From: Pyrobaculum oguniense TE7
GTDB taxonomy: Archaea > Thermoproteota > Thermoprotei > Thermoproteales > Thermoproteaceae
Length of the DNA stretch: 64,000 nt
NCBI GenBank assembly: GCA_000247545.1
Contig: CP003316.1
Location: forward strand, 1,025,233-1,089,232
Direction: 5' to 3'
Shown here: positions 3,321 to 46,758 of the stretch, one piece after another
Position numbering within the stretch: the stretch's first letter is position 1
Layout of the letters: every line of letters begins with the position of its first letter
Program-made: the position numbers and the translations under genes
Notes under the pieces: generated by a model
Databases searched by the model: none
What the model was told of the DNA's origin: nothing
The model's input: the letters and a program-made list of their open reading frames with translations, nothing else

Positions 3321-3426
3321 CCTCCTCTACAGCCAAGCTAACACCCCCCTTTCCCCCGCTGTAGTTTAGGCCCGTATTACTTGCCATGTCATCAAAAAAG
3401 ATTTATGGTAGTGGGGGGGTTGGTCG

Positions 3427-3850
3427 GTGTCCACCTCTGAGAAGGCGGTATATACCCAGACGGGAGGCCCGTGCATCGGCGACTTGAAGGGCCTTGAGCC
3501 CGTGTTCGAGAAGCACGGCGTGGAGTACGCTGTGGTCTTCGGCTCCTTGGCGAAGAAGGGCTGCGGCCGGGATGTCGACCTTGCAGTGAAGTTTAGGGAG
3601 GAGAAGGGGCTTTGGGGCTTGGCGGCGCTAGTGGCGGACGTGGCCGATGCCCCTAGACTACGGCCAGGTAGACGTGGTGGACGTCGACGTAGCGCCGCCG
3701 GCATTGCTACTCTCAGTGCTGGAGGGAGTGCCGATATACAACGCAGAGCGGGCCCGGGAGGACCTCGCGTGGAGGTACATCGAGCTCCTCGACGTCGGCG
3801 AGACTTGGGAATACGCCAACCGGCGGATTAGCCCTCGGCCCCGCTCGTAG
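3427..3850 (+). pseudogene. Frameshifted MNT-type nucleotidyltransferase
   Basis: From a GTG 23 bases after a TATA-like GATTTATGG, the frame encodes the nucleotidyltransferase signature GSLAKKGCGRDVDLAV (GS then DxD-type Asp pair). After LVADVAD the frame is lost; the continuation DYGQVDVVDVDVAPPALLLS...GVPIYN, typical of the second half of this family, lies in the next frame to a TAG at 3848-3850. One extra C in the CCCC at 3650-3653 explains the break. The intact protein would be about 140 residues, an antitoxin-like MNT protein without a visible HEPN partner. Real decay or sequencing error cannot be told apart here. Confidence 0.7.
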
Positions 3851-42023: not shown

Positions 42024-43022
42024 GTGAGGTGCTCCTACTGCGGCGCGCCGCTCGACGTCACTCCTGAGTCTGTGGTTGTGGTCTGCAAATACTGCGGCAC
42101 CCCGAATTTCCTCACAGGCAACCCGTCGAAAATACTGGCAGTGCCCACCCTCACGTCAAGCGAAATACTTCGCCGGGCAGTGGAGCGGACGAAGAGGGAT
42201 TTCAACCTCGGGAGGAGGATGTCTGACATAAACTTCTCAAGCCCCGAACTGCTCTACGTCCCCTTCTACTTCGTAGACGTCGCAATCCGCGCCGTCTACG
42301 ACGCGGTGGTCACTGTGACCTACACAAAGACTGTGCGCGTAGCGGGTAGGACTGAGATGCGTACTGTGAGCAGGACAGTACGGGTCTCCGGCTCCGTGAG
42401 GCTTCAAGACGTCGTCGCGGTGCTGGCGAGGAGGGCGGCTTGGGGCATCTCAGTGGACAAACTAACAGAGCACTTTTTCAAAACAGCGCCTGAGCCCAAG
42501 ACCTTGTCGGAGGTTGTCTCCTCCGCCTCCGTCTCATCGTCTTTCCTCGCCGGCGAGATGACGCCCGAGAGGGCCAAGGCCAAGGCGGTGAGGGCGGTGA
42601 TGCCGAGGTTGCTGGCGCTTGTAGACGAGGACGCGTCGGAAAAGGCCAAACTCGCCGTGGGGGTGCTAGTCGCCTCCACCTTCGTACGAGACAAGGCAGT
42701 GGACTACACAGTGGAGAGACTGGAGGCCTCCCCCCTCACCTACCTCCCCATGTGGGTAGTGCCTTATCTCTTCAAAGGGTCTTACTACAGCTACTACGTC
42801 GCCGGCTGGGACGGGGCAGTGATTGTCGCCGAGGAGCCCACCTTCGCCGAGCATAAGGCCCTTTATTTGGCAGGCACCTCGCTATTAGGCGGCGTCCTCG
42901 GAGGGATCGGCGCCACGTTGCTTATAGATCCAGTGGTCGCGTCCGCGTTTGTAATAGGCGCCGGCGTCTTGACCTATCTGGCGTCCAGCCCCATGCTGAG
43001 GCCTAGGAGGGTGGAAAAATGA
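42024..43022 (+). CDS. Zinc-ribbon membrane protein 1
   Basis: 332 residues. N-terminal ribbon with Cys3, Cys6 (CSYCG) and CKYCG, a large middle domain, and one or two C-terminal membrane helices (about 285-325, GGVLGGIGATLLIDPVV). A GTG 24-30 bases after TTTATATTTA is used as start; the longer frame would begin inside the TATA element. Its end overlaps the next, related gene by four bases. Arrangement resembles YdjG-like zinc-ribbon proteins of bacteria, which travel with SPFH proteins; an SPFH gene lies 4 kb away. Confidence 0.75.
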   Translation: MRCSYCGAPLDVTPESVVVVCKYCGTPNFLTGNPSKILAVPTLTSSEILRRAVERTKRDFNLGRRMSDINFSSPELLYVPFYFVDVAIRAVYDAVVTVTYTKTVRVAGRTEMRTVSRTVRVSGSVRLQDVVAVLARRAAWGISVDKLTEHFFKTAPEPKTLSEVVSSASVSSSFLAGEMTPERAKAKAVRAVMPRLLALVDEDASEKAKLAVGVLVASTFVRDKAVDYTVERLEASPLTYLPMWVVPYLFKGSYYSYYVAGWDGAVIVAEEPTFAEHKALYLAGTSLLGGVLGGIGATLLIDPVVASAFVIGAGVLTYLASSPMLRPRRVEK

Positions 43023-43861
43023 TAATACAGTGCCCGTTCTGCGGGGCGAAATACGAGGCGCCGCCTGGGCGTAAATTCTACGTCTGCCCCTACTGCGGTA
43101 CAGTGTTGTCGGAGGGGAAGACCTTCGAAAACGTCTACGTCTTCAAGCCCACTGTGGACAAGACAGAGGCCTTTCGCAAAGCCCTCAACTTCAGGCCCTT
43201 CGGCGCCCCAGACGACCTCCCATCAGCCAGCCCCGAGGCCGCCGAGCTCCACTTCCTCCCCCTGTTCCTCTACCACATCATATTTTCCCCCCTCGACGAG
43301 CTGGAGACCTACGCCACCGCCCTCGCCGTGTCCACGTCTCCGTTCAAACTCCCGAAGAGGTACGTCTTCCCCGCCAGGTGGAGGACGCCATTCAAGCCCT
43401 CCCTGGAGAAAATCGGCGTCTTCCACTCGCCTGACCTCTCGCCGGAGGAGGCCTTCAGCTCGCTGAGAGACGTGGTGGAGGAGGCCCGGGACTACGCTTC
43501 TGTGTTCAAGGTCAGGGTGAGGGTGGAGTGGAGCTTCGAAGGCATTGTCTACTACCCATTCTGGCAGTTAAGATACCGCTACCGTAATAGGCCGTACGGG
43601 GCGCTGGTAGACGCCGCCGAGGGTTCTGTGCTGTATTTGGAATATCCCATATCCCGACGCGGCAGGGCAGGGGGGCTCGGCCTAGCCGCAACGGCGATTC
43701 TATCCTCGTCGGCCGTAGGGGCGCTGGTGGGCGCGTACCTCTCCCTCGCCCCGGCGCTTGGGGCGCTTGGCGGCGCCTTGGCCAGTCTCGGAGCAGCCGC
43801 GAGGCTCGTCACCTTCGCCGCGTCGCGCACAGGCAAATACGAGGCGGCTTATAGGCTTTGA
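43019..43861 (+). CDS. Zinc-ribbon membrane protein 2
   Basis: 280 residues with a four-Cys ribbon (CPFCGAKYEAPPG, VCPYCGTVLS), a middle domain ending YYPFWQLRYRYRNRPYGALV and C-terminal membrane helices rich in Ala/Gly/Leu, then a basic tail. Same plan as the preceding gene, to which it is coupled by an ATGA overlap; probably partner subunits. The PFW-like segment is shared in kind with archaeal zinc-ribbon membrane proteins. Function unknown. Confidence 0.75.
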   Translation: MIIQCPFCGAKYEAPPGRKFYVCPYCGTVLSEGKTFENVYVFKPTVDKTEAFRKALNFRPFGAPDDLPSASPEAAELHFLPLFLYHIIFSPLDELETYATALAVSTSPFKLPKRYVFPARWRTPFKPSLEKIGVFHSPDLSPEEAFSSLRDVVEEARDYASVFKVRVRVEWSFEGIVYYPFWQLRYRYRNRPYGALVDAAEGSVLYLEYPISRRGRAGGLGLAATAILSSSAVGALVGAYLSLAPALGALGGALASLGAAARLVTFAASRTGKYEAAYRL

Positions 43862-43891
43862 AACTTTTTATAGCCACAGACCCCAGATCCC

Positions 43892-44758
43892 ATGAGCAAA
43901 ATAGCGCTGGCTCTTCTGCTAGTGCTCATAGCCGGCGCCGCTGTGTACTTCATCTATATCTCCTCCACAGCGGCGGGTCAAAACACCCAGACCACGTCGC
44001 CCACAGCGACGCCTCCCACCACGACGTCCTCGCCAACTGCGACAACCACGAACGCACATGCGGCGAGTACTACAGTCACATCGCCCACCGCAACCACTTC
44101 GCAAGCGACGGCCCCCACGACGGCTACGCCGAGCTCGCCCCTTGCCCGGGGGAGTTACGAAATCAACTACAGCCACGTCGTGACGGTCCACGTGGGCGAC
44201 TTGGCGGTGAGGATGACCGGCTGGACAGTGGAGGGGGTAAGCAGTGGCGGGAACTACAGCTTTGGCAAGTTCCTCATAAATATCCCACCGCAACGGACGG
44301 AGGTGGTGTACAAAGCCGCCACTGAGGGGCTCAGAATGTACGTGATGAGTTGCTCCGCCGGCCAGTGCCAGGCGGAGGTACTCCCCATAAACTACACCGC
44401 GTTAGGCTTTCTACGAGGCATCGTCACCTCAAGACAGGTAAAGGGCCAGTGTACATACATGGGCCACAGCGGCATCGCGGTGGAGGAACGAGGCGTCTTA
44501 ACCGAGGATATCCTCAAGGTAGTTCTAGGCGACCTACCTGGAAATGGGACGGGCCTCTACATGTCCAACCTCTGCGAAGTGTCGGGAGTCCCCCTAACCA
44601 CGTCAGGTCAGGTATATCTCAACGTCACTGTCTACGGCCAGTTGCTCACCCTTAAGCTCGAAGTGGATTCTAAGGCAGTGTCCATAGGCGAGTACAACGC
44701 CACGCGATACGCCCAGATACTGGCAGAGGTGAAGGGGGCACAAAAAGGCGGCGCCTAG
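43892..44758 (+). CDS. Secreted Thr-rich protein, paralogue of the 2.6-kb gene
   Basis: 288 residues: signal helix (MSKIALALLLVLIAGAAVYFI), a long Thr/Pro/Ala stalk (to about 90), then the domain shared with the protein at 2568-3320 (GSYEINYS, NYSFGKF, TSRQVKGQC, LCEVSGVPL). The C-terminus carries seven residues (GAQKGGA) beyond the end of the paralogue, just before a PaRep2b gene in the same frame. TATA (CTTTTTATAG) about 24 bases before the ATG. Confidence 0.75.
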   Translation: MSKIALALLLVLIAGAAVYFIYISSTAAGQNTQTTSPTATPPTTTSSPTATTTNAHAASTTVTSPTATTSQATAPTTATPSSPLARGSYEINYSHVVTVHVGDLAVRMTGWTVEGVSSGGNYSFGKFLINIPPQRTEVVYKAATEGLRMYVMSCSAGQCQAEVLPINYTALGFLRGIVTSRQVKGQCTYMGHSGIAVEERGVLTEDILKVVLGDLPGNGTGLYMSNLCEVSGVPLTTSGQVYLNVTVYGQLLTLKLEVDSKAVSIGEYNATRYAQILAEVKGAQKGGA

Positions 44759-44773
44759 GAGGGTGCTGAGAGG

Positions 44774-45715
44774 TTGGCCTCAATCCTAAACGCATTAGGC
44801 GCAGTGGCCGAGGCGAGGCTGCACGGCAAGGAGTGGCACGTGGTGCTGTACACCGACTCCATCACGGCACTCCGCCGCGCCGAGTGGATAGAGGCTGTGA
44901 AGACCCTCGTCGAGGCGCTACACAAAAACGAGATAATAAGCGGCGTGAAGAAAGACGAGTTGCTGGAGGAGTTGGCCGCTGGGCCTAATGTAGTTAAGAT
45001 AGCCGGCGTGAAAATGAACGTGACAGCGGCGAAAGACGGCAAATCAGAGCGACTGGTGATCCGCTACTTGCCGAGATCGGTAGAGGCCTTCGAAGCCCCT
45101 GTGAAGGCGCTTAAAGAGGCAGGCTTCGAGGAGGGGATACACTTCACCACCAGGAGACCGGAGGAGGGAGAGAAGGGCGACAAAAAGCCGGGCATCATCC
45201 GCCTGAAGGTGCGGGCTGGCCTCTGGAAGCTTGAAGAGCTTAGGCGGCAAGGCGTCGGCTGGGCCGCCGAGGCGGTCGACAAGCTGGAGGAGATAGCAAG
45301 GGCAAGGGGCTTCTACGATCTCCTTGAGGAGTATCTGAGGCCGGCGAGGGAGGCCGAGACCTTCGACCCGAGGGGGATGGTTGCAGAAGATCCGGAAAGG
45401 GGGATAAAAGCCGTGGTTAAAGATGTGTGGGTACAGTGGGAAGGCGGCCGGCCTAGAGTTGTAGTGGAGTACGAGGCAAATGGGAAGGCCAAGAAGTACA
45501 CCTTCATCTGGGGCGTGGTGACAGGAGGAAGGGTCAGCGTCAAGGTGAGACTAGACGAGGAGAAAGCCGCCGTCCATGCGGCGCTGACGGGAGACGGGTC
45601 GCTGAGGGGGAAGAAACATGTGACGCTCACCGCTAAACACCTACTCGCTATGGCAAAGATAAAAGGCGTCGGGTGGCAGTTGCTGAGATGGTACGCCGAG
45701 GTGAGGGGTGAGTGA
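44774..45715 (+). CDS. PaRep2b-family protein
   Basis: 313 residues resembling the Pyrobaculum repeat family PaRep2b: LHGKEWHVVLYTDSITALRR, EWIEAVKTLVEAL, AGPNVVKIAGVKMNV, GFEEGIHFTTRRPEEGEKG. TTG is the first start; the frame is the same as that of the preceding gene and open right from its stop, so the N-terminus may have been lost and expression may depend on the upstream mRNA. Function of the family is unknown; it is multicopy in Pyrobaculum genomes and spreads in accessory regions. Confidence 0.7.
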   Translation: MASILNALGAVAEARLHGKEWHVVLYTDSITALRRAEWIEAVKTLVEALHKNEIISGVKKDELLEELAAGPNVVKIAGVKMNVTAAKDGKSERLVIRYLPRSVEAFEAPVKALKEAGFEEGIHFTTRRPEEGEKGDKKPGIIRLKVRAGLWKLEELRRQGVGWAAEAVDKLEEIARARGFYDLLEEYLRPAREAETFDPRGMVAEDPERGIKAVVKDVWVQWEGGRPRVVVEYEANGKAKKYTFIWGVVTGGRVSVKVRLDEEKAAVHAALTGDGSLRGKKHVTLTAKHLLAMAKIKGVGWQLLRWYAEVRGE

Positions 45716-45787
45716 GGTGTATCCAGCCGAGAGCCTAACTACATCATACGGCGCCATAAGCAACTACATGAACCACACAGAGTGGGC

Positions 45788-45841
45788 CCCATGAGCAAAA
45801 TTGCGCTGGCTCTTCTGCTAGTTCTCATAGCCAGCGCCTAG
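45788..45841 (+). pseudogene. Duplicated signal-peptide fragment
   Basis: Bases 45788-45838 repeat 43889-43939 with three mismatches in 51. They encode MSKIALALLLVLIASA and then a TAG, so only the start of the secreted-protein gene is present. The two copies flank the body of that gene plus the PaRep2b gene. Confidence 0.75.
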
Positions 45842-46758
45842 CAACGCTTCATCCTCTTCAACTCCTCCACCGCCTCCCCTAAGGTCATGCCCTTTGCCAA
45901 AAGCCGCTCTAGGTGGAGCTCTGTCGGCATCCCGTGCGCTAAGAGGATCTCAGCCGCCTCGTCGATAGGAGCGTCGTACTGGTAAATTAGCCTAGCCGCC
46001 TTGTTAAGGGCCAAAAGCGCCGATGGGTCAAAGCGGAATCCCACCAAGGCGCAGGCATCTACCACGATCTCTCTAGTCCCGCCGCGCATCGCCGCCGGCC
46101 CGTGCTCCCCGCGGAATGCCCTCACGGCCACCGCCGACGCCTCCGTAACGCACCTCCCCACAAGCGACTCTAGGACATCAATCTGGGCCCTGCCTATGCC
46201 CACAGACCCAAGCAGTGCGCCTGCCCGGGCCGCCTCGGCCAACCTGTTCATGAGATACTCCCTGCTCAACTCGCCGTCGGCCCCCGGCGACATGACCCAG
46301 ACCTCGGCCTCGATGCCCAGCTCCTTTGCCTGTGCCAAAACTGCTAGGCCGTAGGCGTCGGAGAGGGGGCTCCTCAGAGAGTCCTCACATCCGATGCCCA
46401 ACACGTCGCCCCCCACGTCAACCCCGATGATTTTGTTAAAACGCGACAAAGTTTTTGACAGCTCACTCGGCCTTTTATATGGGTCTGCCAGATATACGGA
46501 CTTTTTCAAAACCTCAGCGACGCACATGCCTTGAGTCTTGAAAATCCTCCCACCCCTCTCCGCGTAGCTCCTCGGCGTAGCGAGGTATAGCCCTCCTCCG
46601 AGCTCTACTACTTCGCGCAGAGCACCTGGCGGCACGGGCCCGGGCTCGGGGTCCACCACGAAGCGCTCCCAGGGCAACTGCCCCACCGCCTCCTCCCCGG
46701 CTAGAGCCGCGGCGAAGACCACATCTCCACCCCCGCCAATCGCCAAATACAAAGACAC
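45838..46758 (-). CDS. DUF1152 family protein
   Basis: 306 residues. The Gly-rich LAIGGGGDVVFAAAL near the N-terminus and IIGVDVGGDVLGIGCEDSL in the middle are the family's hallmarks and suggest a nucleotide- or phosphate-binding Rossmann-like fold. The start is set at the GTG 25 bases after CTAAAAATT; a longer frame reaching 46917 lies inside the neighbouring gene and lacks protein character. Function of DUF1152 is not known. Confidence 0.8.
   Translation of the reverse strand: MSLYLAIGGGGDVVFAAALAGEEAVGQLPWERFVVDPEPGPVPPGALREVVELGGGLYLATPRSYAERGGRIFKTQGMCVAEVLKKSVYLADPYKRPSELSKTLSRFNKIIGVDVGGDVLGIGCEDSLRSPLSDAYGLAVLAQAKELGIEAEVWVMSPGADGELSREYLMNRLAEAARAGALLGSVGIGRAQIDVLESLVGRCVTEASAVAVRAFRGEHGPAAMRGGTREIVVDACALVGFRFDPSALLALNKAARLIYQYDAPIDEAAEILLAHGMPTELHLERLLAKGMTLGEAVEELKRMKRC

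What the first reader, a model, noticed from the sequence alone, without database searches (positions are those of the whole stretch)
43889..45838. 51-bp duplication flanking a secreted-protein gene and PaRep2b
The start of the secreted-protein gene (signal peptide) recurs after the PaRep2b gene with three mismatches and then stops. PaRep2b is in frame with, and open from, the stop of the secreted gene, and the secreted protein has a tail its paralogue lacks. This points to a tandem duplication or to insertion of the PaRep2b unit, and gives a clue to how this multicopy family spreads.
Basis: partly seen in the sequence, partly recalled or inferred. Interest (0 to 1): 0.6.

Follow-up and report, generated by a model that had tools for sequence, protein, structure and literature searches.

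The report
Insertion scar beside an archaeal gene
In one hot-spring archaeon a piece of DNA carrying part of a multicopy gene (PaRep2b) was inserted exactly at the end of a secreted-protein gene, leaving behind a stub made of that gene's first 16 codons and its stop codon; this is a readable rearrangement scar, not evidence of a new jumping element.

Summary
The repeat is real: 43889-43939 recurs at 45788-45838 (48 of 51 bases), nowhere else in this genome. Sizes match Pyrobaculum oguniense TE7. In all 7 of 7 congeneric genomes that hold both genes, the secreted gene (S) and the DUF1152 gene lie tail to tail with at most 25 bp between matches, so about 1,080 bp (44759-45838) were gained in the P. 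oguniense lineage.

The insert is composite: (i) the last 313 codons of a PaRep2b gene; (ii) a 40-bp scrap of a DHH/RecJ-like phosphoesterase gene; (iii) the first 16 codons of S, joined in frame to S's own stop codon and to the ancestral junction with DUF1152. Both outer junctions lie on GGCGCC-type microhomologies. The right-hand repeat is thus a second S start joined to S's stop, not a target-site duplication.

Not supported: the S tail as a clue (orthologues have one), and PaRep2b moving as a unit with flanking repeats (no similar repeat at 10 other copies tested). The closest PaRep2b copies in this genome are only about 75% alike, so the insert probably came from another strain. P. arsenaticum, the decisive comparison, is not held. 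Modest interest.

The parts
43019..43861 (+). zinc-ribbon gene upstream of S; left member of the conserved block
   Evidence: ORF, PF08271 E 8.4e-08; same order next to S in G002, G004 and G006 (in G008 the script found S, DUF1152 and genes on the far side, but no zinc-ribbon match)
43892..44758 (+). secreted-protein gene S (intact copy), 288 aa, stop TAG at 44756-44758
   Evidence: ORF; orthologues in 7 of 10 other congeneric genomes at 45-55% identity
43889..43939 (+). left copy of the 51-bp repeat: CCC plus the first 16 codons of S
44747..44761 (+). left junction: GGCGGCGCC-TAG-GAG; PaRep2b paralogue L123 reads GGCGGCGCC-AAG-GAG here
44759..45838 (+). inserted DNA (about 1,080 bp) relative to all comparable relatives
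44774..45715 (+). 5'-truncated PaRep2b gene, 313 aa from TTG, open
   Evidence: PF07775 from profile position 109-122 to 510
45747..45786 (+). scrap of a DHH/DHHA1 (RecJ-like) phosphoesterase gene
   Evidence: 36 of 40 identical to the G004 gene, 30 of 40 to the resident gene; E 4.2e-9; family
45788..45838 (+). right copy of the 51-bp repeat: start of a second S copy, MSKIALALLLVLIASA then stop
45834..45846 (.). right junction: GCGCC-TAG-CAACG, the ancestral S/DUF1152 stop-codon overlap
   Evidence: relatives G002, G004, G006, G008 show GC(C/T)TA(G/A)CAA(C/T) here
45838..46725 (-). DUF1152 gene, conserved neighbour
   Evidence: PF06626 E 6.3e-77; found in 28 of 41 genomes

Best explanation
The S gene became duplicated in the P. 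oguniense lineage with foreign DNA between the copies, and the second copy then collapsed. Most likely a strain variant in which a PaRep2b fragment and a DHH scrap lay just upstream of S recombined with the ordinary locus: a crossover at GGCGCC joined the end of one S to the inside of PaRep2b, giving S - PaRep2b' - DHH scrap - S. A deletion between two GGCGCC copies (codons 15-16 and the last two codons) then removed 272 codons of the right-hand S in frame, leaving 16 codons plus the native stop. PaRep2b' sits directly behind S and can probably be transcribed only by read-through from S or from an unrecognised start. Shown: the insertion, its composite make-up, the motifs at both outer junctions, and the ancestral right junction. 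Inferred: the order of events, the strain donor, the expression, and microhomology as the cause.
For: S and DUF1152 are adjacent in 7 of 7 congeneric genomes that have both (gaps of 25 bp or less between matches, one overlapping), within a conserved gene block in the genomes checked. The right junction keeps the ancestral overlapping stops. PaRep2b paralogues carry the GGCGCC codons at exactly the left junction, in the same frame. Random junctions between S and PaRep2b show 6 or more matching bases in 0.2% of draws and 9 or more in 0.007%. The S start is 94% alike, whereas PaRep2b is at most 75% alike to any resident copy and the DHH scrap is closer to G004 (36/40) than to the resident gene (30/40), which fits an outside donor carrying its own S. 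Shared genes of P. oguniense and P. arsenaticum average about 96% identity (PMC3558965, passages), near the 94% seen. Microhomology-mediated end joining is documented in a crenarchaeon (PMC12019639, abstract).
Against: No strain with the proposed intermediate (PaRep2b upstream of S) was seen; only one genome of the species is held. The junction of the DHH scrap with the S start shows no clear microhomology. GGCGCC is frequent here (92 in 64 kb), so it is weak evidence for any single junction. The left S tail used to score the microhomology could itself have been changed by the event. Two of the three mismatches in the repeat are silent third positions, too few to date anything.
Confidence: 0.48

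Rival explanations
1. One-step patchwork repair: a break at the stop codon of S was filled by copying in turn from a PaRep2b gene, a DHH gene and the start of S, then rejoined at GCGCC. No full second S ever existed.
For: Several short unrelated pieces in a row, microhomology at both outer joints; only the first 16 codons of S are present.
Against: If all pieces were copied from the same cell they should be about equally similar to their sources; PaRep2b (75%) and DHH (30/40) are far more diverged than the S piece (94%).
Confidence: 0.27
2. Simple local tandem duplication of S, later insertion of PaRep2b/DHH DNA between the copies, later deletion in the second copy, all as independent events.
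For: Gives the same end product; 3 of 51 mismatches allow time for several steps.
Against: Needs at least three events and an insertion that removed all sequence between the S copies; no trace of an upstream region like that of the first S remains before the second start.
Confidence: 0.16
3. Transposition of a PaRep2b element with a long target-site duplication.
For: A direct repeat is present; PaREP2b has been called a putative transposon (PMC3558965, passage).
Against: The left repeat is followed by S codon 17 onward and the right repeat by S's stop, so the repeats do not bound a PaRep2b unit; PaRep2b is truncated; no convincing inverted ends, no transposase match, no such direct repeat at the other copies tested.
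Confidence: 0.04
4. Assembly error or chance similarity.
For: None found.
Against: E 3.5e-16 in the genome; 59-fold pyrosequencing is reported (PMC3558965, passage), and a 51-bp repeat is easily spanned by such reads (read length recalled, not looked up).
Confidence: 0.03

Closest known systems
PaREP2/PaRep2b multicopy family of Pyrobaculum (Pfam PF07775)
   Same: The inserted gene is a family member (E 3.2e-80); PaREP genes mark strain-variable regions in P. oguniense versus P. arsenaticum (PMC3558965, passages).
   Different: Here a stand-alone 313-aa C-terminal part starting inside the family profile and placed behind a host gene, whereas several other copies lie in open frames of 1,245 to 4,386 codons.
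Gene duplication followed by deletion between short direct repeats
   Same: Right-hand S copy lacks exactly the stretch between two GGCGCC copies and stays in frame.
   Different: Foreign DNA lies between the copies.
Microhomology-mediated end joining in Saccharolobus islandicus (PMC12019639)
   Same: Joints on short identical stretches in a crenarchaeon.
   Different: No evidence here for the primase or any particular enzyme.
Insertion-sequence transposition with target-site duplication
   Same: A direct repeat brackets inserted DNA.
   Different: Repeat and insert limits do not coincide, and ends and transposase are lacking.

Membership tests
PaRep2b (PF07775) | match above the curated cut-off | tested here: met
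   270.5 bits against 20.4
PaRep2b (PF07775) | full-length domain | tested here: not met
   starts at profile position 109-122 of 512; five other copies in this genome start at 2-7. Filed as a fragment of the family only
Transposable element insertion with target-site duplication | direct repeats immediately bounding the mobile unit | tested here: not met
   left repeat is followed by S codon 17 onward, right repeat by the S stop
Transposable element insertion with target-site duplication | terminal inverted repeats or a transposase gene | tested here: not met
   only inverted repeats of 21-24 nt, 74-82% complementary, none at the insert ends; Pfam finds only PaRep2b
Transposable element insertion with target-site duplication | same kind of repeat at other copies | tested here: not met
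   flank-to-flank comparison of 11 oriented copies, window included: the window is the only one with a near-identical direct repeat longer than 22 bp
Tandem gene duplication | a second full copy | tested here: not met
   only 51 bp of a second copy; ancestry as a full duplicate is inferred
Microhomology-mediated rearrangement | shared bases at the joints | tested here: inconclusive
   GGCGGCGCC at the left joint, GCGCC at the right; the inner DHH/S joint shows none
Microhomology-mediated rearrangement | dependence on an end-joining enzyme | not testable with these tools
   needs experiment

The most novel reading that the evidence does not exclude
PaRep2b genes spread as 5'-truncated copies with a fixed 3' end, primed by short homologies at the landing site and often next to tRNA genes: in this genome homology among copies ends within 26 bp of the stop codon but begins at very different points (about -9, -25, -102, -216, -419, -524 and beyond), and 3 of 12 loci have a tRNA gene within 75 bp of the 3' end. 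That would resemble target-primed copying, a mode not known to me for archaeal genes of this kind.
Probability: 0.06. Interest if true: 0.7.

Novelty: new member of a known kind. Interest (0 to 1): 0.27.

Why it matters
It is a clean, base-level record of how a fragment of an unexplained archaeal multicopy family came to lie behind a host gene, with an empty site in seven relatives. It cautions against reading flanking repeats as transposition footprints. If PaRep2b fragments elsewhere show the same fixed 3' end and variable 5' end, the family's mode of spread becomes testable.

Tried and rejected
Transposition with a 51-bp target-site duplication: rejected from the junctions. Chance repeat: rejected. 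Secreted-protein tail acquired from the insert: rejected, orthologues have a tail. General rule of flanking repeats at PaRep2b copies: not found. The flank comparison did list other repeats: L124, a 126-bp direct repeat of 71%, away from the gene ends, with stops in all three frames checked; L125, four matches (42-bp, 33-bp and 16-bp inverted, 22-bp direct), mostly tRNA sequence; L126, a 46-bp inverted copy of the 5' flank of the adjacent tRNA-Pro gene; L123, a 16-bp direct match. The L126 case was followed: compared with G006, tRNA-Pro is inverted relative to its neighbours, so its inverted duplication looks like an inversion scar rather than the same thing as the window. L131 and L132 (divergent copies) were not included in the flank comparison, and L133 is a 3' fragment whose 5' limit was estimated.

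PaRep2b as a LAGLIDADG-like endonuclease was considered from the LAALTGD motif (recalled resemblance). It was not supported: no PDB sequence match better than E 0.03, only PF07775 convincingly in Pfam, and a single-sequence model of mean pLDDT 55.5 whose fold search gave nothing at E 0.001 or better. That is no evidence either way.

PaRep2b on viruses or plasmids: no match in phages or plasmids, none in viral contigs. The S-start pattern had no match in viral contigs.

Decay of PaRep2b': the reading frame is intact and the window copy has 8 of 99 unique replacements at otherwise invariant columns, within the range of the 9 copies (1 to 20); dN 0.20-0.30 against dS 0.59-1.61. So there is no sign of decay, but most of this history predates the insertion.

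Full report
Observation. The window is contig C1, 1025233-1089232, of a genome of 2,436,033 + 16,887 bp, the sizes given for Pyrobaculum oguniense TE7 (PMC3558965; search listing and passages read). The 51-bp direct repeat is present as described, 94% identical, and has only these two places in the genome. The left copy is CCC plus codons 1-16 of a 288-aa secreted-protein gene, here called S (43892-44758). The right copy begins 72 bp after the stop of a PaRep2b gene (44774-45715; PF07775) and ends where the DUF1152 gene on the other strand ends (45838-46725; PF06626).

What is ancestral. S orthologues and DUF1152 orthologues were sought in 41 genomes each. Of the 10 other genomes of the genus, 7 have both, and in 7 of these 7 the two matches lie tail to tail, 5 to 25 bp apart or overlapping by 2 bp (G010). 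In G002, G004 and G006 the whole block zinc-ribbon genes - S - DUF1152 - SPFH/zinc-ribbon gene is conserved; in G008 the S-DUF1152-SPFH part was found and no zinc-ribbon match was returned (SPFH). The stop codons of S and DUF1152 overlap in the form GC(C/T)TA(G/A)CAA in G002, G004, G006 and G008. In P. oguniense exactly this form, GCGCC-TAG-CAACG, is found at the right end of the right-hand repeat. About 1,080 bp, 44759-45838, are therefore extra.

What the extra DNA is. It has three recognisable pieces. First, a PaRep2b gene that begins inside the family profile (position 109-122 of 512). It is at most 75% identical to other copies in this genome and 68% to the best in G006. Homology with the other copies ends at the stop codon, a few bases past it at most. 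Second, 45747-45786 matches the same DHH/DHHA1 phosphoesterase gene in seven other genomes (best E 4.2e-9): 36 of 40 bases in G004, 35 in G002, but 30 in the resident gene. Third, the first 16 codons of S followed directly by S's stop.

Junctions. On the left, S ends GGCGGCGCC-TAG and continues -GAG; PaRep2b paralogues read GGCGCC-AAG-GAG there (GGCGGCGCC in L123; three copies differ, two reading TAG and others not aligning that far), in the same frame. That is why PaRep2b appears in frame with, and open from, the S stop. On the right, the S start has GCCGGCGCC and the ancestral S end has GCGCC before TAG. In 300,000 random junction pairs between S and PaRep2b, 9 or more shared bases occurred in 0.007% and 6 or more in 0.2%. 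Against this, GGCGCC is common (92 in 64 kb), and the inner joint between the DHH scrap and the S start has no evident microhomology.

Reading. The right-hand repeat is what remains of a second S copy after everything between two GGCGCC copies was lost (272 codons, in frame), or the product of one patchwork repair. I favour a duplication brought about by recombination with a strain variant, because the S piece is 94% alike while the PaRep2b and DHH pieces have no close source in this genome. P. oguniense and P. arsenaticum share about 96% identity in common genes, and PaREP genes mark many of their differences (PMC3558965, passages). This is inference; the decisive strain is not held. Microhomology-mediated end joining has been shown in Saccharolobus islandicus (PMC12019639, abstract and section list only).

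Tail of the secreted protein: orthologues in G002, G004, G006, G008 and G003 end in comparable tails, so it did not come from the insert. Flanking repeats elsewhere: among 11 oriented copies (window included) only the window shows a near-identical direct repeat of this length; other listed repeats are tRNA-related, inverted, weak or short. So the scar does not reveal a general mode of spread.

State of PaRep2b here. The frame is open over 313 codons, unique replacements at conserved columns are within the range of the other copies (8 of 99; range 1-20 among 9 copies), and dN/dS against 8 other copies is about 0.2-0.4. No function could be assigned: no solved relative, a low-confidence model, no fold match at E 0.001. 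It has no match in the phage and plasmid collections.

Literature. Searches for PaREP2 and for Pyrobaculum with PaRep returned two papers each; of these only PMC3558965 was read (passages). It calls PaREP2b a putative transposon in passing. I saw no description of this locus, but most subscription papers are outside the library.

Noticed in passing
L125 (G000:C1:200000-206000), L126 (G000:C1:2252000-2258500), L127 (G000:C1:2426000-2434500): In 3 of 12 PaRep2b loci scanned for tRNAs a tRNA gene (Lys, Pro, Leu) lies 35-75 bp beyond the 3' end of PaRep2b.
   Followed up: partly
L126, about 2285-2335 and 3385-3430: 46-bp inverted duplication of the tRNA-Pro 5' flank brackets tRNA-Pro plus a broken PaRep2b; tRNA-Pro is inverted relative to G006, which suggests an inversion with duplicated breakpoints.
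   Followed up: partly
L123 (G000:C1:528000-546000); also G002, G004: PaRep2b profiles match inside open frames of more than 4,000 codons (4,386 in this genome, 4,436-4,725 in G002 and G004).
   Followed up: no
PaRep2b loci of G000: Copies share a common 3' limit but have widely different 5' limits of homology.
   Followed up: partly
window 44757-44774: AGGAGGGTG lies 8 nt before the TTG start of PaRep2b and resembles a ribosome-binding site; several paralogues read AGGAGAAGG there. Anti-Shine-Dalgarno sequence recalled, not checked.
   Followed up: no
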